Shown piece by piece: positions 1,171-60,984 of a stretch of DNA of 64,000 bases (position 1 is the stretch's first letter; each line of letters begins with the position of its first letter). A program made the position numbers and the translations under genes. The notes beneath the pieces are model-generated. The model made no database searches, was not told the DNA's origin, and saw only the letters and a program-made list of their open reading frames with translations. Origin of the DNA: Rufibacter sp. DG15C (lineage in GTDB: Bacteria; Bacteroidota; Bacteroidia; Cytophagales; Hymenobacteraceae); contig NZ_CP010776.1 of the NCBI RefSeq assembly GCF_001577755.1, positions 3,286,001 to 3,350,000 on the forward strand, read 5' to 3'.

Positions 1171-1211
1171 TCCGGTTTTGGCCTGTTTTCCAGAAATTGG
1201 GGTAAAAACGC
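1171..1211. repeat. Intergenic palindrome, copy 1 (degenerate)
   Basis: The left arm CCGGTTTTGGCCTGTTTTCC is close to consensus; the right arm is decayed to GGGGTAAAAACG. It lies just after the menC stop, between menC and the convergent sirtuin gene. Confidence 0.75.
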
Positions 1212-1255
1212 TAAAGCATTGCTTGCTGCATGAATTTTATAATGGCGGTTTTCGC

Positions 1256-1954
1256 CTAAAATTCTAGCAACTGCTGAACCACTTTGGGCACGCCCTCGGT
1301 GGCTTTTTCTTTGAGGATGGTGAGGTTTCTTCTGTGGGACACGGCGGGGGTGTTAGGATCTACCAAGTAAATGGGCGTGTCATGTGGGGCGTAGGAGAGG
1401 AGTCCGGCCGCCGGATACACTTGTAACGAAGTGCCAATCACCAGCAGGTAATCAGCAGTCATGGTTTCTTCTATGGCTTGTTCAATCAAGGGCACCGGCT
1501 CCCCGAACCAGACAATGTTGGGCCGTAACTGGGACCCTTTCTCGCAAAGGTCGCCCAGCTTCAACTCCCAGCCTTCTACCGGATAAATGAGCGATGGGTC
1601 CTGCGTACTACGGTTTTCAAAAAGCTTTCCGTGGAGGTGTAGAATATTTGTGGAGCCGGCGCGCTCGTGCAGATCATCCACGTTCTGGGTGATTATCTGC
1701 ACGTCAAACTTTTCTTCCAGTTTTACCAGAGCCAAGTGGGCGGCGTTGGGTTTTACATCTAAGGCGCTTTTGCGGCGTTGGTTGTAGAAGTCCAGCACCA
1801 GCTCCGGGTTTTTGCGCCACCCTTCCGGTGAGGCCACTTCCATCACGTCATGTCCTTCCCAAAGCCCATCTGCATCCCGGAAGGTGGCCAAACCGCTTTC
1901 GGCGCTGATTCCGGCCCCGGTTAAGACTACTACCTTTTGTTTTTTTAGTGACAT
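1256..1954 (-). CDS. cobB: Sir2-family NAD-dependent protein deacylase (class III)
   Basis: The product is an NAD-dependent lysine deacylase. From the chosen start the NAD-binding GAGISAESGLATFR motif comes near the N-terminus, followed by TQNVDDLHERAG and the catalytic histidine in LHLHGK. A YNQR stretch matches the Y-x-x-R motif that in CobB/SIRT5 binds succinyl or malonyl lysine, so desuccinylase activity is possible. The four zinc-binding cysteines of classical sirtuins are missing; only one cysteine lies in that region. The frame is open upstream to a TTG at 1984, but the ATG at 1954 (MSLKKQKVVV) starts right before the Rossmann strand, and the extension runs into repeat-like DNA, so I use 1954 (232 residues). 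The gene is convergent with menC. Confidence 0.85.
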   Translation of the reverse strand: MSLKKQKVVVLTGAGISAESGLATFRDADGLWEGHDVMEVASPEGWRKNPELVLDFYNQRRKSALDVKPNAAHLALVKLEEKFDVQIITQNVDDLHERAGSTNILHLHGKLFENRSTQDPSLIYPVEGWELKLGDLCEKGSQLRPNIVWFGEPVPLIEQAIEETMTADYLLVIGTSLQVYPAAGLLSYAPHDTPIYLVDPNTPAVSHRRNLTILKEKATEGVPKVVQQLLEF

Positions 1955-1986
1955 AAGACGCATTTTTTTAGACACATGACACAAGG

Positions 1987-2135
1987 TTCAAGACATAAGA
2001 TTATTCTACAAGTAGAGTAAAATACGCAAATATCTACAAAAGGAAGAAGTCCGTTTTTGGCTTGTTTTCTAGAAAACAAGCCAAAAACGGACTTCAATTA
2101 AGATTCAAGTCTTGTGTCTTGAATCTTATGTCTTG
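1987..2135. repeat. Short inverted repeats flanking a palindrome
   Basis: CAAGACATAAGATT at 1989-2002 is found inverted at 2122-2135. Further related words (ACACAAG, TTCAAG, TCTTGTGTCTTGAATC) fill the stretch on both sides. The pair brackets the 50-bp perfect palindrome at 2046-2095, so the region is a nested inverted repeat between the sirtuin and topA genes. Confidence 0.7.
2046..2095. repeat. Intergenic palindrome, copy 2 (perfect 50 bp)
   Basis: This is a perfect palindrome with no unpaired centre: the left half 2046-2070 is the exact reverse complement of 2071-2095. The core is CCGTTTTTGGCTTG, the centre TTTTCTAGAAAA, and the copy-specific outer arms are GAAGT and ACTTC. It lies downstream of topA and upstream of the sirtuin gene. 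Confidence 0.95.
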
Positions 2136-2148
2136 CGTCTATCCTAAA

Positions 2149-4757: not shown

Positions 4758-5249
4758 ATGAAACATCTTTTGTTAATGAGGCACGCTACAACGCTGGAAA
4801 AAGTTCCGGGCCAGACAGACCTGGAGCGTGAACTCACCCCGCTAGGCCATAGCCAGGCTGTCACGGCAGGACTCTGGCTAAAAGAGAAAAAGCTGGTGCC
4901 AGACTTGATTCTCTGCAGTCCGGCGGTACGTACGCAATCTACCCTGGCTGGGGTTTTAGCGGGGCTGGGCGTATCTGTACCTGTGCAGACAGAAAAAGAT
5001 ATTTACCATGGGGATGAAGAAGATTTAATGCACCTTTTAGAAACCGTAGATGCCTCTGTGCAGACTCTATTATATATAGGGCATAATCCTACCATTGGGT
5101 ATTTTGCCAATGCGCTTACACAAAGAAGAGTTAGTTTCTCACCAGCCACCATCCTGGATTTGGTCCCGAAAGAAGAAGATGCCACTGGTAAGGCGACAAG
5201 CACCTTTCATCTACAGGAAAGGTTCATAGCCCCAGTAGATTCATTTTAG
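4758..5249 (+). CDS. SixA-like histidine phosphatase family protein
   Basis: The 163-residue product belongs to the phosphoglycerate mutase-like histidine phosphatase superfamily, SixA branch, which in E. coli removes phosphate from phosphohistidine on phosphotransfer proteins. The start LLLMRHATT carries the catalytic RH pair, and the second histidine is in LLYIGHNPTIG. The frame opens earlier at a TTG (4689), but the ATG at 4758 puts the RH motif at the usual position. Its stop codon (5247-5249) lies inside the left arm of a palindrome copy. The substrate is not known; a role on a phosphorelay protein is inference. Confidence 0.8.
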   Translation: MKHLLLMRHATTLEKVPGQTDLERELTPLGHSQAVTAGLWLKEKKLVPDLILCSPAVRTQSTLAGVLAGLGVSVPVQTEKDIYHGDEEDLMHLLETVDASVQTLLYIGHNPTIGYFANALTQRRVSFSPATILDLVPKEEDATGKATSTFHLQERFIAPVDSF

Positions 5250-5279
5250 GGCTATTTTCTAGAAAACAGGCTAAAAACG
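5245..5279. repeat. Intergenic palindrome, copy 3
   Basis: TTTTAGGGCTATTTTCT / AGAAAACAGGCTAAAAACG forms the arms. The left arm contains the TAG stop of the SixA-like gene. Confidence 0.85.
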
Positions 5280-5356
5280 AATTTAAACGGCATTTTAATT
5301 TGTAGCTTTAACCCGTTTCAACGGCAGAAAAATAAATTTCAGTTTTCGTGTAACCT

Positions 5357-6106
5357 ATGGCAACAACTATCGTATCGGTCATCAACCAAAAGGGGGGTAC
5401 TGGCAAAACCACTACTACCATTAATCTGGGAAGCGCGCTCCAAAAGCTAGGAAAGCGGGTGCTGTTGATCGATTTAGACCCACAAGCCAACTTATCTTAC
5501 TCCCTGGGCATTACAGAACCTGAGCGTACTTTAGCAGATGTATTCACCGGCCAGCACAGCTTGTCAGACATTCTGCAAGAATGCGGCGGCCTGCAAGTGG
5601 CGCCTGGTACCAATGACCTGGTAGACGTGGAGATATCTTTGGTAGGACAGGAGAGCCGCGAGGAGTTTCTGCAGAGCATGTTACAAGAAGCCAAGGGGTT
5701 TGACTACATCTTGATAGATTGTCCGCCTTCGCTGTCCTTGTTGACGGTCAATGCGCTTACAGCTTCACATGAGGTGATCATTCCTTTGCAGATGGAGGTG
5801 TTGACGCTGCAGGGCCTTGGTCAGATCCTGAACACGGTAAAGCAGATTAAATCCACGCTCAACCCCAAACTAAAGGTGAAAGGCATAGTGGTGGTTATGT
5901 ATGACAAACGCCGCAAGCTGAGCCTAGAGATAGAAGAGTACCTGCAGGAAAACGTGGAGGAGCGTATTTTTGACCAGCGCATCAGGCTAAATGTAAAGCT
6001 TGCTGAAGCACCTTCTTTTGGGAAGAGTGTGATAGAATATGACCCGGCTTCTAATGGAGCCAAAGATTATTTAGGACTAGCCAAAGAATACTTGGCTGCT
6101 AAATAA
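5357..6106 (+). CDS. ParA-family ATPase
   Basis: The 249-residue product is a deviant Walker ATPase of the ParA/Soj/MinD group. The motif QKGGTGKTTTTINLG at about 10-24 carries the signature lysine, followed by LLIDLDPQANLSYSLG and ILIDCPPSLSLLTVNAL. Such proteins pattern cargo over the nucleoid. No ParB partner is visible in the window; instead the next gene, 120 nt downstream on the same strand, is the giant chemoreceptor. ParA homologues (ParC, PpfA) position chemoreceptor arrays in other bacteria, so a role in placing this array is possible. It could equally be the chromosomal Soj, whose spo0J/parB may lie elsewhere. Confidence 0.9.
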   Translation: MATTIVSVINQKGGTGKTTTTINLGSALQKLGKRVLLIDLDPQANLSYSLGITEPERTLADVFTGQHSLSDILQECGGLQVAPGTNDLVDVEISLVGQESREEFLQSMLQEAKGFDYILIDCPPSLSLLTVNALTASHEVIIPLQMEVLTLQGLGQILNTVKQIKSTLNPKLKVKGIVVVMYDKRRKLSLEIEEYLQENVEERIFDQRIRLNVKLAEAPSFGKSVIEYDPASNGAKDYLGLAKEYLAAK

Positions 6107-6226
6107 GGGTTCTTCTTAACTCTATTTTATTAGTATATTGCATAGCCTATTTTTAAAGGCAGATAAACCATTGCGTGGCAAAACCATTGCCTTGGCATGT
6201 AACAACGCTCTACAATCACATATACA

Positions 6227-9200
6227 ATGGCTTTAGGTAAAAACTTAAAACTCAATAAGGACAAGTTGATTGGGAAGTCAGAAGCTGAGAAACCTGCGGC
6301 CCAGCCGGTAGAGGCTCCAGCACAAACAACCGTAGAAGAGACCCCTGTGGCAGCGCAGGCAGAGGAGCCAACTCCCGCCGCAGTAGATGCCAATGTTTCT
6401 GAAAACGGTATGAATGACGCTCCCCAAGCAGACTCAGGTGCAGGAGATGAAGAGGCAGAGAGGATTGATGAGATTCCTTTATTGGCAGTGCCGTTAGTGC
6501 AAGCGGACCAGGCCAGACGTAGCAATACGCCCAGGCTGCAGTACCAATTGCAAGACAATGATTACATCAATGAGCAGTTGAACCGCGTTCTCTACGCGCT
6601 AGACGCGTTTAAGAAAGGTGACGTTTCTGTAAGGTTAACCAAGCAGAACAATGACATCTTCTCTGAGATAGCCGAAGCCTACAACTCCATGGTGGAGATG
6701 ATTGGTGGGGTAGGAGGCGAGGTATCCCGTATCTCCAAAGTTGCCGGGGTAGAAGGTAACCTGAAAGCCCGTGCCTCTGCTGAGAACGCCTCTGGTTTCT
6801 GGAAGGACATGATCAACAATATCAACGGCTTGGTGGACTCCATCGCCGTTCCGGTATTGGAGGTAGGCAAGGTATTGAAGAACATCTCTAGGGGTAACCT
6901 AGATGAGACATTCCAGATTCCTGTGTCTGGTGACTTCAAGGTCATGGCCGAAACCATCAACCGTACCATTGACAACCTAAACCTATTTGCCGGTGAGGTA
7001 ACCCGTGTGGCCCTTGAAGTGGGTACTGAAGGTAGATTGGGTGGACAAGCCTCCGTGCCAAACGTTGCCGGAATCTGGAAAGAGCTGACTGACAATGTAA
7101 ACGCGATGGCGTCTAACCTTACCTCTCAGGTACGGGACATTGCCAAGGTAACCACTGCGGTTGCACAGGGTAACCTAACCCAGAAAGTAACCGTGGACCT
7201 GAAAGGCGAAATGTTGCAGCTGAAGGAGAACATCAACCAAATGGTGGACTCACTCAACATCTTCGGGGATGAAGTAACCAGAGTGGCCCGTGAAGTAGGT
7301 ACCGAGGGTAAACTAGGCGGTCAGGCCCGTGTACCAAATGTAGGCGGTACCTGGAAAGAACTAACAGACAACGTGAATACCATGGCTAGCAATTTGACTA
7401 GCCAGCTGCGTGATATAGCCAATGTTGCCACCGCTGTTGCAAAGGGTGACTTGAGCCAAAAGATTACCGTTAACGTGCGTGGTGAGATTGCTGACCTGAA
7501 AGACATCATCAACCAGATGGTGGATTCACTCAACATCTTTGCGGACGAGGTAACCCGTGTTGCTCGTGAAGTGGGTACCGAAGGTAAGCTGGGCGGACAA
7601 GCAAGCGTGCCAAACGTAGGTGGTACCTGGAAGGAGTTGACGGACAACGTGAACACCATGGCCGGTAACTTGACCCTGCAGGTACGTGACATTGCCAACG
7701 TAGCAACTGCGGTAGCAAAAGGTGACTTGAGCCAGAAAATCACCGTGAATGTACGTGGTGAGTTAGCTGAGCTGAAGGACAACCTGAACCAGATGGTGGA
7801 CAGCCTTAACATCTTCGCCGATGAGGTAACCCGTGTGGCAAGAGAGGTAGGCACCGAGGGTATTCTAGGGGGTCAGGCCAACGTACCAAACGTAGCCGGT
7901 ACTTGGAAAGCCCTAACTGACAATGTTAATTACATGGCGTCAAACTTGACGCTGCAAGTACGTGATATAGCCAATGTTGCCACCGCGGTAGCAAAAGGTG
8001 ACCTAAGCCAGAAGATGACGGTTGATGTAAAAGGAGAAATCCTGGAGCTGAAGGACAACCTGAACCAAATGGTGGATTCACTCAACATCTTCGCGGATGA
8101 GGTAACCAGAGTGGCCCGCGAAGTGGGTACCGAGGGTATTTTGGGTGGACAAGCAAATGTTCCGAATGTGGGCGGTGTATGGAAAGACCTCACAGACAAT
8201 GTGAATTCCATGGCCTCCAACCTAACGCTTCAGGTACGCGACATTGCGAATGTTGCAACGGCTGTGGCAAAGGGTGACCTGAGCCAGAAGATGACGGTGA
8301 ATGTACAAGGTGAGATTCTTCAACTGAAGGATATCCTAAACCAAATGGTGGACTCCCTGAATACGTTTGCTGGTGAGGTAACCCGGGTGGCGCTTGAAGT
8401 AGGAACCGAAGGAATCTTAGGTGGCCAAGCCAACGTGCCAAACGTGGCCGGAACCTGGAAAGCGTTGACCGACAACGTAAACTCCATGGCATCCAACCTT
8501 ACGCTGCAAGTACGCGACATCGCCAACGTGGCGACCGCCGTAGCCAAAGGGGATTTGAGCCAGAAGATGACGGTGAACGTGAAGGGCGAAATCCTGGAGC
8601 TGAAGAATATCCTGAACCAGATGGTAGACAGCCTTAACATCTTCGCGGGTGAGGTAACTCGTGTGGCGTTGGAGGTAGGTACCGAGGGTAAATTGGGTGG
8701 CCAGGCATCAGTTCCAAATGTGGGCGGTGTATGGAAAGACTTAACGGATAACGTGAACTACATGGCCTCTAACCTGACCCATCAGGTACGGGACATTGCC
8801 AACGTAGCAACCGCCGTAGCAAAAGGAGATTTGGGTCAGAAAATGACCGTTGAGGTAAGAGGCGAAATCCTTGAACTGAAGAACATCCTGAACCAAATGG
8901 TGGATTCACTTAACGTGTTTGCCGGGGAAGTAACCCGCGTGGCGTTGGAAGTGGGTACTGAAGGAAAATTAGGTGGACAAGCCAGTGTGCCAAATGTAGG
9001 TGGTGTTTGGAAAGATCTCACTGACAATGTAAACTACATGGCCTCTAACCTGACGTTGCAAGTGCGTGACATCGCCAACGTAGCGACCGCCGTAGCCAAA
9101 GGGGATTTGAGCCAGAAGATGACCGTGAACGTGAAGGGTGAGATTCTTGAACTCAAGAATATCCTGAACCAGATGGTGGACTCCCTAAACGTATTTGGTG

Positions 9201-11374
9201 ATGAGGTAACCAGAGTAGCCCGCGAAGTGGGTACCGAGGGTAAACTGGGAGCGCAAGCTTCTGTGCCAAACGTAGGAGGAACCTGGAAAGAATTAACTGA
9301 GAACGTAAACTACATGGCAAGTCAGTTGACGAGCCAGGTACGTGATATTGCTAAGGTAGCAACCGCGGTTGCCCGTGGCGACTTGAGCCAGAAAGTGACG
9401 GTAGATGTGAAAGGCGAAATCCTAGAGCTAAAAGAAAACCTGAACCAGATGGTGGATAGCTTGAACATCTTCGCAGACGAGGTAACCCGTGTGGCAAGAG
9501 AAGTGGGTACCGAGGGTAAACTAGGCGGTCAGGCGAATGTTCCGAAGGTACGTGGTACCTGGAAAGAGCTGACGGATAACGTGAACACCATGGCCGCCAA
9601 CTTAACTTCTCAGGTACGTGACATTGCAAAAGTTGCGATTGGCGTGGCAAAAGGCGATTTGAGCCAGAAGGTGACAGTAGATGTAAAAGGAGAACTCTTG
9701 GAGCTGAAAGAGAACATCAATAGAATGGTGGACTCTCTGAACATCTTCGCAGGTGAGGTAACCAGAGTGGCGCTTGAAGTAGGTACGGAAGGTAAACTAG
9801 GCGGACAAGCCAAAGTGCCGAACATTGGAGGGGTATGGAAAGACCTGACCGACAATGTGAATGTGATGGCCTCTAATCTGACCACGCAGGTACGCGGTAT
9901 TGTGAAAGTAGTAACCGCAGTATCTAAAGGTGACCTTACTCAGAAACTGACTTTACAAGCCAAAGGCGAACTAGCAGACCTGGCAGACACCATCAACAGC
10001 ATGGTGGAAGACTTGAACCGCTTAGCGGGTGAAGTTAGCCGGGTGGCCAGAGTAGCGGGTGTGGAAGGTAAACTGACAGAGCGTGCCACGGTAAGCGGTG
10101 TGTCTGGAAGCTGGAAAGAACTAGTAGATACACTTAATGACCTTTTAGAGTCCATCGTGACTCCGGTTCTGGAAGTGTCACGCGTAGTACGCGCCATCTC
10201 TGAAGGTGATTTAACACAGAAAGTAGAAATTCATACCGCCGGAGATATCCTGGCCATGTCCAATGCCTTGAACCTGGCGGTAGATAACTTGAATGCCCTA
10301 TTAGGTGAAATCAATGAAAGCTCCTTGATTGTAGGAAGTTCTTCAGAAGATATGGCTGCTAAGGGTCTAGAGATGAACAGGGTAACGGTAGACGTTGCTC
10401 TCTCTATGCAACAAATGGCAGAGGGTGCGCAGAACCAAGCTTTGAAAACTGACCAAGCCTTTAAACTGATTGAAGAAATCATGAAGGCCACCAAAGAAAC
10501 CGCCAACAAGGCAGACGTGGTGAACCGCTCAGCGGTAATGGGTGAGGAGACTTCCCAGCTAGGTCTGAAAACAGTGGCTGAGGTGGTGAAGAACATGGAA
10601 GAGATTTCATCTTCTGCGGCTCTTACCGCTAAAACCATTGAAGTATTGAGTACCCGTAGCCAAGAGATCTCTAAGTCTCTTGGGGTGATCACAGACATTG
10701 CGGCCCAAACCAACTTGTTGGCCTTGAACGCGGCCATTGAAGCGGCCAGAGCGGGCGAGGCAGGTAGAGGGTTCGCGGTAGTAGCCGAAGAGATTCGGAA
10801 ACTGGCCGAGGGATCACGGAAGTCTGCAAGTGAGATTGCCATTCTGGTAGAAGACGTGAAGAAAGATACTTCTTCTGCGGCAGCGGCTATCGCGACCATG
10901 GAAGGCCGTGTATTGAAAGGAAAGAACGCTACGTTTGAAGCGTCTGGCGCCTTTAAAAACATTGCGACTTCCAGTGGTGAAACGCTCCGCTCTGCCCAGG
11001 ACATCTTGGTGTCAACTGAGGTGCAGAAGTCATCCATTGGCGACGTTGTGAAGTACGTGGAAGAAGTAGTAGCCATTGCCGAACAAACGGCCTCTGGTAC
11101 CCAGCAGGTAGCTAGTACGGCTAAGCAATTGTCTGCTTCCATGCAAGAACTGACCACGTCCAGCCAGCGTCTGAATGACATTGCAGATGACTTGCAGTTG
11201 GGTATTTCTGCCTTCAAGTTGATCAATGGTAACATAGTTTTCCCTAACCGTAACCAGCGCAAGTTGAGTCCGGTACCTACCAGAAAGCGTAGCTTTACGC
11301 CAGACAGCGAGGAAGAAGAAGAGTTATTAAGAAAAGCCACTAGAAAAGCAGGGAAAAATAGAGGACAAGAGTAA
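6227..11374 (+). CDS. Giant cytoplasmic poly-HAMP methyl-accepting chemotaxis protein
   Basis: The 1715-residue product has no signal peptide, no hydrophobic membrane segment and no recognisable ligand-binding domain. Residues 1-90 are rich in Ala, Pro and Glu and look disordered. From about 95 to 1370 it is a HAMP array: 13 units of exactly 92 residues whose G(T/V)EG landmarks fall at 174, 266 and every 92 up to 1278, each with a WK(E/D)LTDNVN element and a GDLSQK...GEILELK element. Paired canonical and divergent HAMPs of this type are known from fungal Nik1/Os-1 kinases. The signalling domain follows, with the receptor tip [20 protein letters not shown] near residue 1505, which binds CheA and CheW. 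The tail is charged (SEEEEELL) and lacks a CheR-docking NWETF-type pentapeptide. The stop overlaps the cheW start (TAATG). The input signal is unknown. Confidence 0.95.
6746..10333 (+). repeat. In-frame 276-bp tandem repeat (13 poly-HAMP units)
   Basis: The GGx-xxx-GAA-GGT codons marking each unit were located at 6746, 7022, 9782 and 10058, all in the same 276-bp phase, so the array has no insertion or deletion over 13 units. The outer two units (GVEG) are diverged; the inner 11 (GTEG) are very similar at both protein and DNA level. Units 7 and 8 differ at only a handful of residues. Confidence 0.95.
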
Positions 11375-11871
11375 TGGAGGTACAAAACGCCCGCGAGAAG
11401 AAGGACACCGTTGTTGAACCAATGGTCCACCTGATTGTCTTCAAGCTTGGTATAGAAGAGTTTGGAGTGCGTATTGAGCAGGTGAAAGAGGTAACCATTA
11501 CCCCCGAAATCACCCGCATGCCCAAAACTCCTTCCTTCATTAAAGGAGTGGCCAATATTAGAGGGGATATCCTAGCCATTATGGATTTAGAGGAGCGCTT
11601 CCAGGTGGAGCGCTCCGCTTCCACAGATCGGCATACGTATACCCTTGTCATTGAAGCCAAAGATTATACCTTAGGATTTATTGTAAAGGAAGTACCTCAG
11701 TCTTTGACTTTGCCCGTATCAAGCATTGACAAAGCACCTTCTTTCATACAAGACATCAACATCAATGAGAACTTCATTGAGGGGATAGGCAAGATTGATA
11801 ACCGCCTCATTATTGTGCTGGATATCTTTAAAATACTAACCTCAGATGAGATAATGGAACTGAGAGGTTAA
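11374..11871 (+). CDS. cheW: CheW-like chemotaxis coupling protein
   Basis: The 165-residue product is a single CheW domain linking receptor tips to CheA. The pattern LIVFKLGIEEFGVRIEQVKE, then ITRMPKTPSFIKGVANIRG and ILAIMDLEERF, is that of CheW, and the C-terminal half (SFIQDININENFIEGIG) completes the fold. The start codon overlaps the receptor stop by one base, so translation is coupled. A short charged N-terminal extension of about 15 residues precedes the domain. Confidence 0.93.
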   Translation: MEVQNAREKKDTVVEPMVHLIVFKLGIEEFGVRIEQVKEVTITPEITRMPKTPSFIKGVANIRGDILAIMDLEERFQVERSASTDRHTYTLVIEAKDYTLGFIVKEVPQSLTLPVSSIDKAPSFIQDININENFIEGIGKIDNRLIIVLDIFKILTSDEIMELRG

Positions 11872-11888
11872 CCAATAAAACGCACGCT

Positions 11889-12266
11889 ATGGAAATCACT
11901 GAGAAAAAGAGAATATTAATTGTAGACGATTCTTTCTACATGCGCACCATGCTGAAAAACATGTTGCTAGATGCTGGCTATGATGTAGTGGGCGAAGCCC
12001 CAGATGGAAAAACAGCCATAGAGATGGCGAAAGAAAAAATTCCAGATCTGGTGACACTGGATGTAATCCTGCCAGATAACACGGGCCTGGATGTATTAAA
12101 AGCCATCAAGCAGAACAACTCTGACATAAAGGTGATTATTGTAAGCGCCGTGGGCCAGGAGGTGATTGTCAATGAGGCCACAGAGTATGGCGCTTTAACT
12201 TATATAGTAAAGCCGTTCTCTGAGGACAAAGTATTGGAAGCCTTAAATCAAGCCTTCCAGGAATAG
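11889..12266 (+). CDS. cheY: CheY-like response regulator
   Basis: The 125-residue product is a single receiver domain with no output domain. It has the acidic pair D13/D14 (LIVDDS), phospho-acceptor D58 (VTLDVILP), the switch serine S86 (IIVSAVG) and K108 (YIVKPF), so it should be phosphorylated by the CheA encoded two genes on. It lies 17 nt after cheW. No flagellar gene is in the window, so its target is unknown; a gliding, pilus or non-motility output are all possible. Confidence 0.92.
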   Translation: MEITEKKRILIVDDSFYMRTMLKNMLLDAGYDVVGEAPDGKTAIEMAKEKIPDLVTLDVILPDNTGLDVLKAIKQNNSDIKVIIVSAVGQEVIVNEATEYGALTYIVKPFSEDKVLEALNQAFQE

Positions 12267-12296
12267 AGGACCCTTGCTTCATTTGTATCCATTTAC

Positions 12297-13415
12297 GTGC
12301 TACACGCGCCCATAACAAAATTCAAGGTTTTAATAGGGGATACCTCTGTCCGGTCTAGACTGGTGCTCTCTGGCATGATCAATGCTGAGCCCCATCTGGA
12401 GGTGGTGGATACTGCCCAAACCAAAGATGAGTTATTGAGCAAAGCGTTTGACTTGCAACCAGATGTGATTGTAGCCACCCCGGGTTTAACGGTAAGCGGT
12501 AAGCTCCCTTTATTCACGCCGGTATATGGGCAGCAGTCGTCTTTGTTGGTTATGATTTCACAAAAGATGGAGTCTTTTCAAGAATCCATTCTTTTGGACG
12601 CAGACGGTGCATCCTTGCTTCAATCCACTAGTAGCCTGACTTCGGGTAAACTGCTGGGAGTTAAGTATGAATTAATGAATAAGTTGCGGGCCTTGGTCAA
12701 AGGATGTACCCAACCGGTTTCATTTAAACCCAAACACCAAGGGGTAGAAGTATTCAGACTAAATGATGCAGTTGATTCTGTTTCTGACACGAAACCACTC
12801 TGCGTAGTGGTGTTGGGGGCGTCAACGGGTGGTTCTACTGCACTTGAATATGTACTGAGAGACTTAGTAGTACAGCAACCTACGGTCATCTTGGTGGCCA
12901 TTCATATGCCTGAGAAGTTTACCAAGCGGCTGGCCAAGCGGTTGCAGAAACTCACCAAATGGCAAGTAGAAGAAGGTAGAAAAGGCATGCAATTAGAGGC
13001 CAACACGGTCATTATTGCACCGGGAGGGCAGGATATGTTCATCCGTCGGAATGCCTTAAAACCTGAACTGTTAACGCTTGATTTAGTGCCTGCTACTTCT
13101 CCAGTTTTAGAGTCGCCGTCTGTAGACACCTTGATGCAATCTGCAGCTTATTGTGCCGGGGATCGTGTACTAGGTATTATTATGACGGGCATGGGGCAAG
13201 ATGGTACCAAAGGAGCGCAAGAAATAAGAAACATGGGCGGTGTCATCATCGCTCAAAATGCAGAAACATCCTCCATTTTTGGCATGGCAAAATCAGCTAT
13301 AGAGAATGGGGTGGTAAACGGAGTGGTGGCCTTAGGCCAGATCCATTCCATGATTAGCCGTTTTGCGGCAGAGAGACACCTGAGCCATGCGCTCCAAAGT
13401 GAGCTTAGTAGATGA
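12297..13415 (+). CDS. cheB: CheB-type protein-glutamate methylesterase with degenerate receiver
   Basis: The 372-residue product has a C-terminal CheB methylesterase domain (about 165-365) with an intact triad: S176 in LGASTGG, H203 in AIHMP and D302 in TGMGQDG. The N-terminal 100 residues follow the receiver fold, but the acidic pair is reduced to IGDTS and the phospho-acceptor position reads T61 in VIVATPGL instead of aspartate. Control by phosphorylation is therefore unlikely. The start is a GTG at 12297; no in-frame ATG precedes residue 27. The end overlaps the cheA start by ATGA. No cheR is present in the window. Confidence 0.9.
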   Translation: MLHAPITKFKVLIGDTSVRSRLVLSGMINAEPHLEVVDTAQTKDELLSKAFDLQPDVIVATPGLTVSGKLPLFTPVYGQQSSLLVMISQKMESFQESILLDADGASLLQSTSSLTSGKLLGVKYELMNKLRALVKGCTQPVSFKPKHQGVEVFRLNDAVDSVSDTKPLCVVVLGASTGGSTALEYVLRDLVVQQPTVILVAIHMPEKFTKRLAKRLQKLTKWQVEEGRKGMQLEANTVIIAPGGQDMFIRRNALKPELLTLDLVPATSPVLESPSVDTLMQSAAYCAGDRVLGIIMTGMGQDGTKGAQEIRNMGGVIIAQNAETSSIFGMAKSAIENGVVNGVVALGQIHSMISRFAAERHLSHALQSELSR

Positions 13416-15046
13416 AGGCGAGAGAGCAGGAATACAAGGAGATATTTATAGCCGAAGCGCTAGAGTATTATGATGCGCTCAGCAGGCACATAAGTGATCT
13501 TGAGAAAAACCCTCAGGATGACCAGGTGCTGGCCGAGATCTTCAGGTTACTCCATAACCTCAAGGCAAACGCCAAGGCCATCGGGTACCTGAATATTGCG
13601 GACGTTGCGCACAAACTAGAGACTGCTTTTGGGCTTATAAGGAACAAGGAGCTAACCTTCAGTGATGAGGTAGTTACCGTGCTGTTTGACGGCGTGGACA
13701 TGTTGGGGGAGTTGATAGGCAACATTGACAATCCAGTCACCATTGAGCCAAGCCCGGCACTGCTCAGAAACCTAGACATTATTGCCAGTACTATTTCAGA
13801 GAATACCGGGGAGGAATTATCTAAGGTGCAGAAGTACTATACTTCTAAGAACCTTTCGCTTTCTGACCTTATCTATATCCAGATTAAAAAGCTGGATCAC
13901 CTGCTCAATCTGGTAGGTGAGTTAATCATTGACCGGGACCGCATTCTTTCCATTAGCAAAGAATTGGACCATGATGATTTAAAAAGCGTTAGTTCCCATT
14001 TGTACCGCATTACCGAGGAACTTCAGTTTAGCGTCATGGATGCCCGCCTGGTAAACGTGGGATCTTTGTTTAACAAGTTTCCGCGCATAGTTCGGGATAT
14101 TGCCGTAGCTGAGAAAAAGGAAATAAATCTGGAGATTGTAGGACAGGATATTCAGATTGACCGTAACATCCTTCAAATCATCACAGACTCTTTGTTGCAC
14201 CTTATGCGCAATGCTATCTCACATGGCATTGAAAAGGCAGACGTGCGCAAAAAGCAGAAGAAATCGCCTCAAGGCAACATCATCCTTTCTGCCCAAAACG
14301 ACCGCGACACGGTTATCTTACGGTTAATTGATGATGGAAAAGGAATTGACCAGACAGAGGTTAGAAAGGCCATTGTCAATAGAGGGTTTTTACCAGCAGA
14401 CGCTGTAGAAGACTTGCGGGACACTGAAGTGCTTTCCTACTTGTTTGAGCCTGGTTTTTCCTTGGCAAAAGAAGTGACAGAATTCTCTGGCCGAGGCGTT
14501 GGATTAGATGTGGTGAAAAATGCCATTGATTCTATTGGAGGGCGCATCCGGGTAGATTCTCAAAAGGGGATAGGTACCACTTTTACCATGTACCTGCCTA
14601 CTTCCATTGCCGTAAAAGGAGCCTTGTTGTGCCAAGTGGAAGAGAATTATTACGCTATTCCGCTTATGCATACAGACTCGGTGGTGTCATTACCATCTAG
14701 TGAATTACATGAAGTAGGAGACTTACTGGTAGCCGATATTCAAGGCGAAACCATTACAATTGTGTATCTGCGCGAGCTGTTCAATGTAGACCTTGACCAG
14801 TACAGTGGCCGTAAATCTAAACTATCAGGTGATGTGCAAAACATCATCATTGTGACTTATAATAACCGGAAGCTTGGTCTTATAGTAGACAGTCTATTGC
14901 GTCAGCAAGACATTGTGATTAAAGCATTAAGCAAACCCGTGAATACCATTGAAATTTATGCTGGCGTGACACTATTAGGCTCGGGCAAGGTTTGCCTGGT
15001 GCTGGATGTGGCCGCTATTACAAGATATTTTATTGCCCGAAGGTAA
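13412..15046 (+). CDS. cheA: CheA-type chemotaxis histidine kinase (no P2 domain)
   Basis: The 544-residue product has P1 (Hpt, about 1-105) with the phosphorylated histidine H48 in LLHNLKANAKAIG, a linker, P3 dimerisation (about 150-205, with LNLVGELIIDRDR), P4 ATPase (N box LHLMRNAISHG with N267 and H271, G1 IDDGKGID at 307-313, G2 GRGVGLD at 360-366) and a P5 CheW-like domain (about 398-544). The CheY/CheB-docking P2 domain is absent and the protein is shorter than E. coli CheA (654). It follows cheB with an ATGA overlap and should be the central kinase of the operon. Confidence 0.93.
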   Translation: MKAREQEYKEIFIAEALEYYDALSRHISDLEKNPQDDQVLAEIFRLLHNLKANAKAIGYLNIADVAHKLETAFGLIRNKELTFSDEVVTVLFDGVDMLGELIGNIDNPVTIEPSPALLRNLDIIASTISENTGEELSKVQKYYTSKNLSLSDLIYIQIKKLDHLLNLVGELIIDRDRILSISKELDHDDLKSVSSHLYRITEELQFSVMDARLVNVGSLFNKFPRIVRDIAVAEKKEINLEIVGQDIQIDRNILQIITDSLLHLMRNAISHGIEKADVRKKQKKSPQGNIILSAQNDRDTVILRLIDDGKGIDQTEVRKAIVNRGFLPADAVEDLRDTEVLSYLFEPGFSLAKEVTEFSGRGVGLDVVKNAIDSIGGRIRVDSQKGIGTTFTMYLPTSIAVKGALLCQVEENYYAIPLMHTDSVVSLPSSELHEVGDLLVADIQGETITIVYLRELFNVDLDQYSGRKSKLSGDVQNIIIVTYNNRKLGLIVDSLLRQQDIVIKALSKPVNTIEIYAGVTLLGSGKVCLVLDVAAITRYFIARR

Positions 15047-15084
15047 GATTGTTGGAGGGGTACAAAACATTAAAAGCCTGATTC

Positions 15085-15708
15085 ATGGAGCTTCAAGTAA
15101 ATGAACTAGAGCGGGATATCATCAAAGAAATCCTTAACATAGGGTTGGCCCGGGCCGCAGATTCGTTTGCAGCTATTGCAAAAGACCGCGTATTGCTCAA
15201 GGTGCCAGACCTGCAGTTAATGGAGGCCAATGAACTGATTGAGATCGTGCGCGCCTATGAAAAGTCGCACACCATCATTCAGTCAGACATCAAAGGTGAC
15301 TTGAACGGCTCTACGTTGATGCTGTTCTCAGAACTGCACATTGAGCAGCTTTCTGCCGTTTGCCTAGGCATGACCGTTGATCCCAAAGATCCCTTGACAG
15401 AAATGCAGGAGTCGCTTCTGTTGGAGATAAGCAATATTATCACGGGCGCCTTGGTGACGCAGTTGGCCAATATCTTAAAGGCTAACATTTATGGCTCGCC
15501 GCCCGTGGCGCCTAAGAATGACATAGCAGAGTCTTTGAAGAGCATTTTCACGGAGCATCCTTTGTTTCAGCCTTTGGTATTCACGGTCATCACGCAGTTT
15601 ACCAATAATACCCAAATGGTAGAATTGCCTTTGCTGCTGTTTTTTGACACCACCACCTTCATCAAAATACTGGAGATCATCCGTTCGTATAACTTCCTGG
15701 CCAAGTAA
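15085..15708 (+). CDS. cheC: CheC-type CheY-P phosphatase
   Basis: The 207-residue product carries both CheC phosphatase signatures, (D/S)-x3-E-x2-N: D11-E15-N18 in DIIKEILNIG and S110-E114-N117 in ESLLLEISNII. With both sites intact it should dephosphorylate CheY-P and end the signal. Each site heads a long helix of the CheC/FliY/CheX fold. It is the last gene of the operon, 38 nt after cheA, and a strong terminator follows. No CheD partner gene is seen nearby. Confidence 0.88.
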   Translation: MELQVNELERDIIKEILNIGLARAADSFAAIAKDRVLLKVPDLQLMEANELIEIVRAYEKSHTIIQSDIKGDLNGSTLMLFSELHIEQLSAVCLGMTVDPKDPLTEMQESLLLEISNIITGALVTQLANILKANIYGSPPVAPKNDIAESLKSIFTEHPLFQPLVFTVITQFTNNTQMVELPLLLFFDTTTFIKILEIIRSYNFLAK

Positions 15709-15777: not shown

Positions 15778-15818
15778 CCGTTTTTTGCTCGTTTTATGGG
15801 AAATAGGCCAAAAACGGA
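15778..15818. repeat. Intergenic palindrome, copy 4
   Basis: CCGTTTTTTGCTCG is the degenerate left arm and GGCCAAAAACGG the consensus right arm. It lies between the cheC terminator and the speDE promoter region. Confidence 0.8.
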
Positions 15819-18722: not shown

Positions 18723-18766
18723 GTCCGTTTTTAGGGTATTTTTGTAGAAATAGCAGAAAAATGGAC
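18723..18766. repeat. Intergenic palindrome, copy 5 (contains recQ start codon)
   Basis: The arms are GTCCGTTTTT (18723-18732) and AAAAATGGAC (18757-18766), pairing with one G-T wobble. The ATG of recQ is at 18761-18763, inside the right arm. Confidence 0.75.
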
Positions 18767-20944: not shown

Positions 20945-20985
20945 TCGTTTTTGGTCTTATTTCCGAAAATCAGGCCAAAAACAAT
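20945..20985. repeat. Intergenic palindrome, copy 6
   Basis: TCGTTTTTGGTCTTATTTCC and GAAAATCAGGCCAAAAACAA form imperfect arms. It lies 45 nt after the recQ stop. Confidence 0.8.
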
Positions 20986-28638: not shown

Positions 28639-28664
28639 CCGCTCATTCATCTTCCATATAAAAC

Positions 28665-36675: not shown

Positions 36676-36690
36676 AAATAACAAAGGGTA

Positions 36691-36726: not shown

Positions 36727-36727
36727 A

Positions 36728-43729: not shown

Positions 43730-43770
43730 GCGTTTTAAGGCTGTTTTCCAGAAAACAGGTCAAAACCGGA
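43730..43770. repeat. Intergenic palindrome, copy 17
   Basis: GCGTTTTAAGGCTGTTTTCC and AGAAAACAGGTCAAAACCGG form imperfect arms around the central TTTTCCAGAAAA. Confidence 0.82.
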
Positions 43771-45072: not shown

Positions 45073-45073
45073 T

Positions 45074-45113
45074 TGATTTTGGGCTGTTTTCACAAAAATA
45101 GGCAAAAAACGGC
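45074..45113. repeat. Intergenic palindrome, copy 18
   Basis: ATTTTGGGCTGTTTTCAC and AAAAATAGGCAAAAAACGGCG are its arms. It begins one base from the start codon of the flavoprotein gene, leaving no room for a separate ribosome-binding region. Confidence 0.78.
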
Positions 45114-45135: not shown

Positions 45136-45963
45136 TTAGAAGCTAGGTGAGCCTAGGCAATGCGCTACATCCGGAAAGGTGAAAGTGTACTTCAACTCTT
45201 GTTGGATGAGCGAGCTGTCAATTATCTTGAACTTGGTCAACTCCTCCTGTAGAAAAGTAGGCGGAGTCAAGCCTAAGGTTAGAGCCGCTGTGGTATAAAA
45301 CTCTTGTCTGGTGGGATGGGAAGGGGCGCAGGCGTTAAAGGTGAATCCCCATTTCTCTTGCCGCAGGATCTCAGTTAAAAGCCCTGTGCAATCTTGCAAA
45401 TGAATCATGTTCACTGGCCCCATCGGCTGAGGTAGGTTCTCCCGACCGGCCAAAAATTTACCCGGAGGCCTGGAGCCGCCCATCAATCCCCCGAACCGCA
45501 CGATGGTCGCCTGTTGAGGCTTTGCCTGCTGTACCCAATATTCGCACCTCAATAACAATGCGTCTGCCTCTGCACTGGCAATAGCATCCTGTTCTGTGAC
45601 CGTTCGGTTTAGTTCTGGGTAGACAGATGTAGAAGAGACAAATAGAACTTTAGTGTCAGGGTTCGGGATGGCAGCTAATAGCTCCTTGACGGTTTTTTCA
45701 TAGTCATTCGCTTCTGAGGCGGCACGTTTAGGCGGAAGGTTTAAAACAATCACATCTGCGTTCAACAGTAGGTCCAAATCCGTTTTTAGGTTATTTTCTG
45801 GAAAAGACACCAAAAATGGTTCTATGCCGGCTTGCTGCAGCAGCTCTAGTTTAGCTGGAGTGGTGGTTGAGCCTTTCACGTGGTGGCCTTCCTGCACCAA
45901 TGCCTTTGCCAGCGGCAATCCTAACCATCCGCAGCCTACTACGCTTATTGTTTTCTGAGCCAT
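45136..45963 (-). CDS. NAD(P)-dependent epimerase-like protein (YeeZ-type SDR)
   Basis: The 275-residue product has the NAD(P) motif VVGCGWLGLPLAKAL at 8-22 and SDR-type segments VLFVSSTSVYPE and IVRFGGLMGG. It resembles atypical SDRs of the YeeZ/YbjS kind, whose substrates are poorly known. The stretch at about residues 47-62 (EPFLVSFPENNLKTDL) is encoded by DNA that matches the intergenic palindrome nearly end to end (45776-45823), in frame and without breaking the fold order. The gene is followed by the flavoprotein gene on the same strand. Confidence 0.82.
   Translation of the reverse strand: MAQKTISVVGCGWLGLPLAKALVQEGHHVKGSTTTPAKLELLQQAGIEPFLVSFPENNLKTDLDLLLNADVIVLNLPPKRAASEANDYEKTVKELLAAIPNPDTKVLFVSSTSVYPELNRTVTEQDAIASAEADALLLRCEYWVQQAKPQQATIVRFGGLMGGSRPPGKFLAGRENLPQPMGPVNMIHLQDCTGLLTEILRQEKWGFTFNACAPSHPTRQEFYTTAALTLGLTPPTFLQEELTKFKIIDSSLIQQELKYTFTFPDVAHCLGSPSF
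45776..45823. repeat. Palindrome copy 19, inside a coding sequence
   Basis: AATCCGTTTTTAGGTTATTTTC and TGGAAAAGACACCAAAAATGGTT match the family core, centre and outer bases. This is the only copy inside a gene; it is read as EPFLVSFPENNLKTDL on the minus strand. Confidence 0.7.
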
Positions 45964-51157: not shown

Positions 51158-51191
51158 AAAAAATAGCCCAGATCGTTTCTGGGCTATTTTT
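51158..51191. terminator. Bidirectional terminator
   Basis: AAAAATAGCCCAGA and TCTGGGCTATTTTT pair around a short TCGTT-type loop; A and T runs lie on both sides. It separates the SRPBCC gene from the convergent S46 peptidase gene. Confidence 0.92.
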
Positions 51192-51216
51192 ATGAAAAGA
51201 GGTCAAAAACGAAGTT
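51192..51216. repeat. Intergenic palindrome, copy 20 (right half only)
   Basis: ATGAAAAGAGGTCAAAAACGAA matches the right arm of the family; the left arm has been replaced by the terminator hairpin. The S46 peptidase stop codon (51215-51217) sits at its edge. Confidence 0.6.
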
Positions 51217-53614: not shown

Positions 53615-53670
53615 AAACAAAGCCGTTTTTGGCCTGATTCTGTGAAACCAGGCCAAAAACGGCTTTGTTT
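53615..53670. repeat. Intergenic palindrome, copy 21 (22-bp perfect arms)
   Basis: The arms 53615-53636 and 53649-53670 are perfect complements around a 12-nt loop. The outer arm AAACAAAG/CTTTGTTT is unique to this copy. Confidence 0.96.
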
Positions 53671-54224: not shown

Positions 54225-54267
54225 TCCGTTTTTGGCCTGTTTTCTGGAAAGGAGGCCAAAAACGGCG
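54225..54267. repeat. Intergenic palindrome, copy 22
   Basis: TCCGTTTTTGGCCTGTTTTC and GGAAAGGAGGCCAAAAACGGC are near-consensus arms, between divergent genes. Confidence 0.92.
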
Positions 54268-55577: not shown

Positions 55578-55637
55578 ATGCAGAAGTCCGTTTTTGGGCT
55601 GTTTTCTAGAAAACAGCCCAAAAACGGACTTCTGCAT
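55578..55637. repeat. Intergenic palindrome, copy 23 (perfect 60 bp)
   Basis: The longest copy: 55578-55607 is the exact reverse complement of 55608-55637, with no loop. The core CCGTTTTTGGGCTG and centre TTTTCTAGAAAA are flanked by the unique arm ATGCAGAAGT/ACTTCTGCAT. It lies between the convergent DinB-like and PhoH-like genes. Confidence 0.98.
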
Positions 55638-57700: not shown

Positions 57701-57741
57701 GACGTTTTTGACCTGTTTTCCAAGAAATAGCCTAAAAACGA
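57701..57741. repeat. Intergenic palindrome, copy 24
   Basis: GACGTTTTTGACCTGTTTTCC and AAGAAATAGCCTAAAAACG are imperfect arms, between convergent genes. Confidence 0.83.
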
Positions 57742-58392: not shown

Positions 58393-58436
58393 TTTCGTTT
58401 TTAGCCTGATTTCCAGAAAACAGGCTAAAAACCGGT
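58393..58436. repeat. Intergenic palindrome, copy 25 (supplies a stop codon)
   Basis: TTTCGTTTTTAGCCTGATTTCC and AGAAAACAGGCTAAAAACCGG form the arms. The TAG stop of the SDR gene (58425-58427) and its last two codons are inside the right arm. Confidence 0.88.
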
Positions 58437-59408: not shown

Positions 59409-59429
59409 TGTTATTGAAAAGGACTTTCC

Positions 59430-59819
59430 TTAGAAAGGAAGATCGTTGTCCATGTCATCACTGATGAATGAATTGGCCTTGGCTGGCTCTTGTGAGAACG
59501 CTGGACGTCCGCCACCGCCGTTTTGGGCTGGGGCAGGGGCACCTGCGTGCTCCACTCTCCAAGCCTGCAAGTTGGTGAAATACATGGTGGTCCCGTTTTT
59601 GGTGAACGGCTTGCCGCTCAGGTTAAACGCCACTTTCACTTCATCGCCGGTTTTATAATTGTCTAGAATGTTGCACTTGTCTTGCGTAAGCTGAAACTTA
59701 GCGTATTGCGTATAAGAGCCATCCGGAATTTCAAGTACAAATTCACGCTTACGGAATTTTTCGCTCACTTGGGTTTCGTCAAAGATCTCGTGTAATCTTC
59801 CTTGAACATCAAAAGACAT
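59430..59819 (-). CDS. DUF3127 OB-fold protein with SSB-like acidic tail
   Basis: The 129-residue product has a DUF3127 domain (about 1-95), which resembles an OB fold of the SSB type, then a Gly/Pro/Ala/Gln-rich linker and the C-terminal tip DDMDNDLPF. In SSB that acidic tip binds RecQ, RecO, exonuclease I and others; its presence suggests that this protein joins the same interaction hub. Single-stranded DNA binding itself is inference. It is monocistronic with its own terminator. Confidence 0.85.
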   Translation of the reverse strand: MSFDVQGRLHEIFDETQVSEKFRKREFVLEIPDGSYTQYAKFQLTQDKCNILDNYKTGDEVKVAFNLSGKPFTKNGTTMYFTNLQAWRVEHAGAPAPAQNGGGGRPAFSQEPAKANSFISDDMDNDLPF

Positions 59820-60000
59820 AGGTGATAAATTTATAAGATTAGTAAAGTAACTCAGTTACAAATATACAAAGATTACAGGGTTAAGATTCCCCTTTGGGTA
59901 CTTTAATTTACTTGGTTTTAGAAGGCCCAAACGCGCGTTTCAGACCTTTTGCGGTTGTATTTCCGTAAGCCTTACATACTTAAAAACACTGCTCTACTGT

Positions 60001-60939
60001 ATGGAGAATACCTTTGCCCTTGCCCTACACGGTGGTGCCGGCACCATCACCCGCGAACTGCTCACCCCAGAACTGGACAGCGCCTACCGCGCCGCCTTGC
60101 AGGATGCCTTAAACGTGGGACACAGACTATTAAACAATGGTGGCACTGCCTTGGAAGCCGTGGAGGCCGTGGTGGTATCATTGGAAGATCATCCCTTGTT
60201 CAATGCTGGCAAAGGGTCTGTCTTTAACAAAAGAGGCCGCCATGAAATGGACGCCTCCATCATGTGCGGCAAAACCCTGGCAGCGGGGGCGGTGGCCGGG
60301 GTGAGAAACGTCCGGAACCCAGTGCAATTGGCCGGCCAGGTGCTGCGCCACTCAGACCACGTGTTCTTGTGCATGCAGGGCGCCGAGGAGTTTGCCCGCA
60401 AGCAAGGCCTAGCCTTTGAACCAGACGAGTATTTCTATACCAAGCAGCGCTATGAGCAATGGCAGCAATTGCGCGACTCTGATGTGTACATGCTGGACCA
60501 TACAGAAGACCTCAAGGACAAGAAATTTGGCACCGTGGGCGCGGTGGCGCTGGACAAAGCCGGGAATATTGCCGCGGCCACCTCTACGGGCGGCATGACC
60601 AACAAAAATTTTAACCGCATAGGCGACACGCCCGTGATTGGGGCCGGTACCTACGCCAACAACAAAACCTGCGCCATCTCCTGCACCGGTCACGGTGAAT
60701 TCTTTATAAGAGCAGTAGTAGCCTATGACATTTCCTGCCTTGTGGAATACAAAGGCTTAAGCCTCACGCAAGCCGCCGACATTGTGGTGCATGATAAACT
60801 GGTGCGCTTGGGCGGTGAAGGTGGATTGATAGGTATTTCCGCTACAGGCGAAATCACCATGCCTTTCAATTCTGAGGGAATGTACCGCGCCTCCTGGGTG
60901 AGCGGTAAGGCGCCGGTGGTGGCAATTTACAAAGACTAA
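60001..60939 (+). CDS. Isoaspartyl peptidase / L-asparaginase (Ntn hydrolase)
   Basis: The 312-residue product is a plant-type asparaginase. It self-cleaves before T178 (KKFGTVGAVALD), which becomes the N-terminal nucleophile; NAGKGSVFNKRG (68-79) and GDTPVIGAGTYAN are family marks. It hydrolyses beta-aspartyl dipeptides, including beta-Asp-Arg released from cyanophycin. The neighbour at 60993-61865, convergent and 53 nt away, is a cyanophycinase-like gene, which makes that role likely. Confidence 0.92.
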   Translation: MENTFALALHGGAGTITRELLTPELDSAYRAALQDALNVGHRLLNNGGTALEAVEAVVVSLEDHPLFNAGKGSVFNKRGRHEMDASIMCGKTLAAGAVAGVRNVRNPVQLAGQVLRHSDHVFLCMQGAEEFARKQGLAFEPDEYFYTKQRYEQWQQLRDSDVYMLDHTEDLKDKKFGTVGAVALDKAGNIAAATSTGGMTNKNFNRIGDTPVIGAGTYANNKTCAISCTGHGEFFIRAVVAYDISCLVEYKGLSLTQAADIVVHDKLVRLGGEGGLIGISATGEITMPFNSEGMYRASWVSGKAPVVAIYKD

Positions 60940-60943
60940 TCCC

Positions 60944-60984
60944 ACGCGTTTTTGGCCTGATTTCTAGAAAATAGGCCAGAAATG
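60944..60984. repeat. Intergenic palindrome, copy 26
   Basis: ACGCGTTTTTGGCCTGATTTCT and AGAAAATAGGCCAGAAATGGC form imperfect arms between two convergent genes. Confidence 0.85.

What the first reader, a model, noticed from the sequence alone, without database searches (positions are those of the whole stretch)
1171..60984. Dense family of intergenic palindromes, 26 copies in 60 kb
A core of CCGTTTTTGGCC ... GGCCAAAAACGG around TTTTCTAGAAAA recurs at nearly every operon boundary, in convergent, tandem and divergent gaps, and is absent from inside the chemosensory operon (5357-15708). It lacks the T run after the stem that a classical terminator needs, and several gaps hold a separate real terminator next to it. 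No transposase or RAYT gene is in the window. It may be a transcription insulator, a bidirectional terminator of unusual design, a nucleoid-protein site or a mobile miniature element.
Basis: partly seen in the sequence, partly recalled or inferred. Interest (0 to 1): 0.88.

Follow-up and report, generated by a model that had tools for sequence, protein, structure and literature searches.

The report
Rigid palindromes at bacterial gene boundaries
A bacterium of the genus Rufibacter carries a rigid 40-letter mirror sequence at many of its gene-unit boundaries, kept in the same gaps in related species but spelled differently in some of them, which suggests a genome-wide boundary signal read by a DNA-binding protein that has not been identified.

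Summary
Confirmed and extended. The window (genus Rufibacter, Bacteroidota) holds 26 copies of a 40-bp dyad, CCGTTTTTGGCCTGTTTTCTAGAAAACAGGCCAAAAACGG. A 504-kb sample (12% of the chromosome) holds 176, roughly 1,450 by extrapolation. Gaps of at least 60 bp hold one in 38 of 48 convergent, 82 of 171 tandem and 16 of 55 divergent cases. Orthologous gaps in relatives keep it (30 of 31 in G013; 1 of 25 where ours has none). G013 shares our spelling; G012 and G005, less so G006, have their own symmetric 'dialect'. Half-site spacing is rigid, lone half-sites are nearly absent and core mismatches are mostly uncompensated: this looks like a DNA site more than an RNA hairpin. Yet 57 of 148 copies add a complementary outer stem, and these less often have a terminator upstream (12 of 67 against 23 of 56). 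No RAYT, end tag or target duplication. Best reading: a boundary site bound by an unknown dimeric protein that blocks or insulates transcription, in some copies merged with a terminator hairpin. Protein and action are inferred; no expression data were available.

The parts
1172..1211 (.). 40-bp dyad element, convergent gap
   Evidence: orthologous gap in G013 holds one
2051..2090 (.). element, tandem gap, perfect palindrome with 5-bp outer stem
5241..5280 (.). element at the upstream edge of the chemosensory operon; overlaps the last 9 bp of the preceding called gene
5357..15708 (+). chemosensory operon (HAMP-array MCP, CheW, CheB, CheA, CheC/CheX by Pfam) without any element
15778..15817 (.). 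element downstream of the chemosensory operon; separate terminator hairpin at 15730-15760
18725..18764 (.). weak copy (22 bits); conserved at -4 from a start codon in four relatives and contains TATTTTTG, so probably a promoter instead
   Evidence: -7 box consensus recalled
20945..20984 (.). element, convergent gap; absent from the orthologous gap in G013, G012 and G008
23474..23513 (.). element, tandem gap; present in all five relatives fetched, with different outer stems
25737..25776 (.). element, convergent gap, 7-bp outer stem; absent from the orthologous gap in G012 and G008
27988..28027 (.). element, tandem gap, directly after the stop codon (31.5 bits)
28660..28733 (.). intrinsic terminator hairpin 28660-28700 overlapping the left arm of element 28694-28733; the T run after the hairpin is the element's left arm
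31942..31981 (.). element, tandem gap
32580..32619 (.). element, tandem gap
34180..34219 (.). element, tandem gap, T run on the transcribed side
35858..35897 (.). element, tandem gap
36688..36727 (.). weak copy (28 bits), tandem gap
40193..40232 (.). element, tandem gap
43730..43769 (.). element, convergent gap; separate terminator hairpin 43678-43714
45073..45112 (.). copy next to a called gene start, at the same distance in G013, G006, G005 and G008, not found in G012; may be a promoter (TATTTTTG on the minus strand)
45780..45819 (.). element inside the called 5' part of gene 45136-45900 (start uncertain)
51159..51212 (.). terminator hairpin 51159-51191 sharing its 3' arm and T run with element 51173-51212; similar arrangement in G013 and G005
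53623..53662 (.). element, tandem gap, 8-bp outer stem
54226..54265 (.). element, apparent divergent gap (gene calls uncertain)
55588..55627 (.). element, convergent gap, perfect palindrome of 60 bp with its outer stem
57702..57741 (.). element, convergent gap
58395..58434 (.). element, tandem gap, overlaps a gene end
60946..60985 (.). element, convergent gap

Best explanation
The 40-bp dyad is a double-stranded DNA site for a dimeric (or tetrameric) sequence-specific protein of Rufibacter. It sits just past gene ends and between transcription units, where the bound protein stops read-through RNA polymerase from either side or otherwise insulates neighbouring units. The site works together with ordinary intrinsic terminators: at some ends a separate or abutting hairpin lies upstream (sometimes using the element's T run as its U tract), at others the element has grown an outer stem and can itself fold as the transcript hairpin. 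In some lineages the spelling of the sites has shifted in step, as expected if all follow one reader. Shown here: position, rigidity, symmetry with little core compensation, conservation of place, dialects in some species, a partial trade-off with upstream terminators. Inferred: the protein, and the blocking or insulating action.
For: Boundary position: convergent 38/48, tandem 82/171, divergent 16/55 gaps of at least 60 bp; 0/45 gaps under 20 bp; in tandem gaps median 33 bp after the stop and 96 bp before the next start; for gaps of 120-400 bp convergent 20/21 against divergent 12/36, Fisher 4e-6. DNA-level site: facing half-sites 2 bp apart in 155 of 159 pairs; lone half-sites nearly absent. 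Core changes mostly independent between arms, and G-U not favoured over A-C on the transcribed strand (84 against 113 in 87 tandem copies); the two halves equally conserved in one-way gaps (15.91 and 15.90 of 19). Non-complementary centre step CA/TG in excess in own (91 of 176, 58 expected), G013 (30 of 52, 17) and G012 (47 of 53, 25). Kept in place: orthologous gaps 30/31 (G013), 20/21 (G006), 18/21 (G012), 8/8 (G005), 7/11 (G008), against 1/25, 2/19, 4/21, 0/5, 2/7 where ours has none; by type tandem 50/52, convergent 23/30, divergent 10/10 over 4 gaps. Dialects: G012 CCGTTTTCGGGCTCATTTC, G005 CCGTTTAGGGGCTGTTTTT; in G012 copies resemble one another (31.0 of 40) more than their orthologs here (26.4, 18 pairs), which are no closer than random cross-species pairs (26.6). 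Link to termination: an upstream terminator in 12/67 records with an outer stem against 23/56 without, Fisher 0.005.
Against: No reader protein was identified or systematically sought; no expression data. In this genome the outer stem (positions -1 to -5) covaries strongly (z 3.4 to 5.5), so base pairing matters in part of the copies; core positions 1, 2 and 8 covary here, 8 also in G006 and G012, 2 and 4 also in G012. In the other species the outer-stem signal is weaker, and absent within error in G013. The clear in-step signature rests on G012 alone: G013 has our half-site spelling and orthologs closer (31.8) than paralogs (29.6); in G006 and G005 copies are no more alike within the species (26.5, 25.4) than to their orthologs here (27.2, 26.0). 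CA/TG centre not enriched in G006, G005 or G008. 89 of 171 tandem gaps of at least 60 bp lack the element. A promoter-box count did not separate tandem gaps with from those without it (14/68 against 12/54). Element-free ends also have terminators (32/89 tandem, 9/20 convergent; shuffled 8 and 1), so presence of a terminator does not depend on it. Gene calls are my own. In some searches a convergent element counts once for each gene end.
Confidence: 0.47

Rival explanations
1. REP-like RNA hairpin at mRNA 3' ends: the transcribed palindrome folds, protects the message from 3' exonucleases or completes termination; the DNA has no reader.
For: Enrichment after stop codons; outer stems with compensated changes within this genome and between species; folds of the flanked region of about -40 to -65 kcal/mol in the best copies; trade-off with upstream terminators.
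Against: Core arms mostly vary independently, G-U is not favoured, spacing is rigid, conservation sits in the A-T tracts and not in the G-C pairs that would strengthen a stem; copies in 4 divergent gaps are kept in 10 of 10 comparisons, though small unannotated genes there cannot be excluded.
Confidence: 0.22
2. Nucleoid or topology site: a gyrase, IHF-like or bridging protein binds at unit ends to organise supercoils or domains, without stopping transcription itself.
For: T and A tracts nearly invariant across dialects and spaced near the helix repeat within each arm; CA/TG centre in three of six species; more frequent between convergent genes, where positive supercoils gather (recalled).
Against: Does not by itself explain the trade-off with upstream terminators; no protein identified; topology not tested.
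Confidence: 0.18
3. Miniature mobile element or its ancient relics, spread by a transposase that preferred terminators, perhaps later domesticated.
For: High copy number; hairpins abutting many copies; a few copies in other genera of the family; some gaps differ between species; only Y1-type transposases were searched for.
Against: No Y1 transposase in the genome; no clear target duplication: a slight excess of 2-base direct matches here (22 against 14.7) and in G012 (6 against 2.3), none longer, mostly AT and TT, TA once in 175; conserved gaps across species; 1 copy each in two atypical 20-kb stretches.
Confidence: 0.1
4. DNA uptake sequence with dialects, homogenised by biased transformation.
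For: Different consensus by species in very many sites, as in Neisseriaceae (PMC3630211, abstract and passages seen).
Against: Uptake sequences also occur inside genes (PMC3630211 passages); here lone half-sites are nearly absent and 9 of 176 copies lie at least 60 bp inside called genes.
Confidence: 0.03

Closest known systems
REP/BIME elements (GTAG and CGTC super-families)
   Same: Short intergenic palindromes in high copy, mostly in tandem and convergent gaps; sequence classes that differ between related strains (PMC3733652, PMC2817692, PMC3686654, passages seen).
   Different: No excess of GTAG, GTGG or CGTC near the ends, no RAYT, fixed 40-bp dyad, core pairing mostly not kept by compensation, copies held in the same gaps across species.
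Bidirectional intrinsic terminators
   Same: Palindrome at gene ends; some copies carry or share a hairpin and T run.
   Different: Conserved primary sequence, rigid spacing, T tracts inside the arms, mostly no T run after the stem.
DNA uptake sequence dialects of Neisseriaceae
   Same: Very many short sites whose consensus differs by species; often inverted pairs near terminators (PMC3630211 passages).
   Different: Here dyads nearly always outside genes with lone half-sites nearly absent; no evidence on competence gathered.
Roadblock terminators bound by a DNA-binding protein (such as yeast Reb1; recalled)
   Same: Proposed mode of action: a bound protein stops polymerase.
   Different: Analogy only; bacterial, palindromic, protein unknown.

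Membership tests
REP/BIME | Conserved end tetranucleotide (GTAG/GTGG or CGTC) | tested here: not met
   Within 8 bases of either edge of 175 own copies: GTAG 15 (11.2 expected), GTGG 6 (7.6), CGTC 3 (9.0); no excess in five relatives beyond GTAG 5 against 2.7 in G006 and 6 against 4.3 in G013
REP/BIME | Cognate RAYT (Y1_Tnp, PF01797), expected for the GTAG class | tested here: not met
   0 matches in the whole genome; 5 of 14 control genomes positive. The CGTC class is reported to lack a dedicated transposase (PMC3733652)
REP/BIME | High copy, intergenic, mainly tandem and convergent gaps | tested here: met
REP/BIME | Palindromicity kept by complementary changes | tested here: inconclusive
   Not in most of the core; yes in outer flanks and at positions 1, 2 and 8 in this genome
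Intrinsic terminator | G-C-rich hairpin followed directly by a T run | tested here: not met
   17 hairpins ending at the element's far edge with a T run, over 158 element-bearing gene ends; other ends use separate or abutting hairpins or none was found
DNA uptake sequence | Frequent single copies, also in coding DNA | tested here: not met
   Lone half-sites at score 16 or more: 10 in 464 kb, 6 of which belong to 3 full elements at stretch ends that the element list had left out; shuffled 1
DNA uptake sequence | Promotes DNA uptake | not testable with these tools
   needs a transformation assay
MITE | Target-site duplication | tested here: not met
   Direct flank matches of 3 or more bases as expected in four species; slight excess at 2 bases in own and G012
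MITE | Insertion polymorphism between relatives | tested here: inconclusive
   Mostly retained; some gaps differ, no precise empty site examined
Protein-bound boundary site | A specific binding protein | not testable with these tools
   no candidate sought systematically; needs biochemistry

The most novel reading that the evidence does not exclude
Rufibacter marks the borders of its transcription units genome-wide with one dedicated punctuation sequence, of the order of 1,400 sites, read by an unknown DNA-binding protein whose changing specificity has rewritten the sites in step in some lineages, giving boundary dialects.
Probability: 0.3. Interest if true: 0.92.

Novelty: new variant of a known kind. 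Interest (0 to 1): 0.76.

Why it matters
From general knowledge, bacteria are held to end transcription units with hairpins or Rho, not with a shared sequence signal. A site conserved in place at this density, with dialects in some species, would be a natural system for asking how a global DNA-binding protein and many hundreds of its sites change together, and could supply compact two-way insulators for engineering. It also gives a testable case where a palindrome family is maintained in place without a RAYT.

Tried and rejected
Rejected: RAYT-driven REP, target-duplicating mobile element, uptake sequence, known RNA family (no Rfam match in the window at gathering score). The 40-mer had no match in the phage collection and one weak partial match (E 0.5, Niallia) in the plasmid collection (near kin may be left out there). 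A de novo search for an equivalent repeated palindrome in 80 kb from each of five other genera of the family found none, only scattered hairpins; a shared-looking 18-mer in G016 and G017 was found once in each sample. Promoter-box comparison of tandem gaps gave no difference. T richness after the outer stem was only weakly higher (3.10 against 2.48 of 8, p = 0.06). Papers: ten searches listed nothing that I recognised as describing this element; I read titles and abstract starts of the listings, and of six papers the abstract or passages. Most subscription journals are not in that library.

Dropped rows: element lists used score cut-offs 15 (464-kb set) or 20 (504-kb set); copies near stretch ends (first 40 or last 80 bases) were left out of the 464-kb set; 16 of 164 elements not assigned to a gap were left out of gap counts; the middle class (2 outer pairs, 37 records, 11 with an upstream terminator) is outside the Fisher test; one search used only orthologous pairs with offset 12 or less (57 pairs). 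In one search the script centred on the dyad in 5 of 10 loci and on another palindrome in the other 5.

Full report
What and where. The window is G000:C1:3286001-3350000 of a 4,143,738-bp chromosome. An exact pattern of the motif (centre left open) matched two Rufibacter records and nothing else in the genome collection, from which the window's own genome may be left out; all 15 other genomes of the same genus searched carry the family. I therefore place it in Rufibacter (Bacteroidota, Hymenobacteraceae). The unit is a 40-bp dyad, CCGTTTTTGGCCTGTTTTC-TA-GAAAACAGGCCAAAAACGG. Model R1 and a weight matrix each give 26 loci in the window. Both were trained on the same 32 copies (21 from the window, 9 from elsewhere in this genome, 2 from G006), so those match by construction; the whole-genome pattern search (128 sites within 3 mismatches, 0 for the reversed control) needs no training.

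Number. In 464 kb (window plus 20 evenly spaced 20-kb stretches) 163 copies score 20 or more and one dinucleotide shuffle of each stretch gives none. With two further stretches and a re-trained matrix there are 176 in 504 kb, or about 1,450 in the chromosome by extrapolation. The family search scored at most 150 candidates per genome and counts both strands, so one search does not give copy numbers.

Position. Genes were called by my own script; there is no annotation. Of 164 elements 148 lie in gaps and 16 could not be assigned, some of them at stretch ends. Gaps of at least 60 bp hold an element in 38 of 48 convergent, 82 of 171 tandem and 16 of 55 divergent cases; gaps under 20 bp in 0 of 45. 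For gaps of 120-400 bp the counts are 20/21, 61/102 and 12/36. In tandem gaps the element lies nearer the stop in 67 of 87 cases, median 33 bp. The chemosensory operon 5357-15708 has none inside and one at each side. In 504 kb, 9 of 176 copies lie at least 60 bp inside a called gene.

DNA site or hairpin. Three results favour a DNA site. First, facing half-sites are separated by 2 bp in 155 of 159 pairs, and lone half-sites are nearly absent. Second, core changes are mostly not compensated: pairing at positions 9, 12, 14, 15 and 18 does not exceed what shuffled partners give, and in 87 tandem copies G-U mismatches on the transcribed strand (84) do not exceed A-C (113). Third, conservation peaks in the T and A tracts (positions 5-7 and 16-17 and their partners, 95-100% in tandem copies), and the two halves are equally conserved in one-way gaps. 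Against this, positions -1 to -5 outside the core covary strongly in this genome (z 3.8 to 5.5): 57 of 148 copies have at least 3 of 5 outer pairs, and in these core positions 1, 2, 8 and 11 covary too. In relatives the outer-stem signal is weaker: z up to 3.8 in G006, 3.7 in G008, 2.5 in G012, and nothing clear in G013 or G005 (19-53 copies each). At single gaps the outer stem changes letters while staying paired, for example AACTG/CAGTT here, ACCGT/ACGGT in G006 and AGGTT/AACCT in G012 at gap 23448-23595; over 57 orthologous pairs, 34 outer pairs changed both letters and stayed paired, against 23.4 with shuffled flanks. So a subset is also a hairpin.

Relation to terminators. At element-bearing gene ends 88 of 158 have a hairpin plus T run, against 17 of 158 in shuffled sequence; element-free ends have one in 32 of 89 (tandem; shuffled 8) and 9 of 20 (convergent; shuffled 1). 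Of the 95 hairpins at element-bearing ends 28 lie clear upstream, 18 end 0-3 bases into the element, using its T tract, and 17 end at its far edge. Records with an outer stem have an upstream terminator less often (12 of 67 against 23 of 56, p = 0.005; convergent copies count once per gene end). I read this as two ways of supplying the transcript hairpin next to a common DNA site.

Evolution. In five relatives the orthologous gap holds an element when ours does (30/31 G013, 20/21 G006, 18/21 G012, 8/8 G005, 7/11 G008) and rarely when ours does not (1/25, 2/19, 4/21, 0/5, 2/7). By gap type the retention is 50/52 tandem, 23/30 convergent and 10/10 divergent, the last over four gaps. The 30 bases of flank, compared without gaps, match at 12.4 to 17.6 per 40, where chance is 10. 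Spelling: G013 has our half-site; G012 (CCGTTTTCGGGCTCATTTC) and G005 (CCGTTTAGGGGCTGTTTTT) differ at several positions, symmetrically in both arms, G006 mainly at position 8; the G008 set is small and its consensus changed. The in-step signature is clear in G012 only: its copies match each other at 31.0 of 40 and their orthologs here at 26.4. In G013 orthologs are closer (31.8) than paralogs (29.6); in G006 and G005 copies within the species (26.5, 25.4) are no closer than orthologs (27.2, 26.0). Two 20-kb stretches with low coding scores hold one copy each (L037, GC 39.4%; L025, GC 48.9%); density rises with the coding score over 21 stretches (Spearman 0.65, p = 0.0015; 0.52, p = 0.02 without those two).

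Range. Ten loci from three of these were inspected: five show the dyad, two of them plainly between convergent reading frames. R1 over 23 genomes outside the genus (family and order) gave one weak hit.

Judgement. Existence, position, conservation in place and dialects in some species are shown. A protein reader is the simplest cause of a rigid symmetric site whose spelling can shift genome-wide, but it is inferred; so is blocking or insulation. I call it a new variant of the REP-like kind and not categorically new, because it shares habitat and abundance with REPs although it fails their end-tag and RAYT tests.

Noticed in passing
window 28733-28893; also L020 18130-18236, L035 3230-3514: A second intergenic repeat family of about 100-200 bp (CCTTCTCCCTGAGGGAGAAGG ... 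CCCCTCAAGGGGGGAATCC in the window), with matches at many places in G013, G006 and G012; that the three places are one family is a guess.
   Followed up: no
window 18725-18764 and 45073-45112: Conserved TATTTTTG blocks at a fixed distance from called start codons, probably promoters (Bacteroidota -7 box TAnnTTTG, recalled), that resemble the element enough to be picked up.
   Followed up: partly
window 6227-11374: A 1,715-aa chemoreceptor-like protein with about a dozen HAMP domains before its MCP signalling domain.
   Followed up: no
L020 2738-2842 and G013:C1:1507676-1507887: A short tandem array with a unit of about 36 bp, apparently longer in G013; nature not examined.
   Followed up: no
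L037 and L025: Two stretches with low coding scores (L037 also GC 39.4%) and one element each, perhaps acquired DNA.
   Followed up: partly
L094 and L098 (G104:C4:559402 and 559476): Two copies 74 bp apart in another genus of the family.
   Followed up: no
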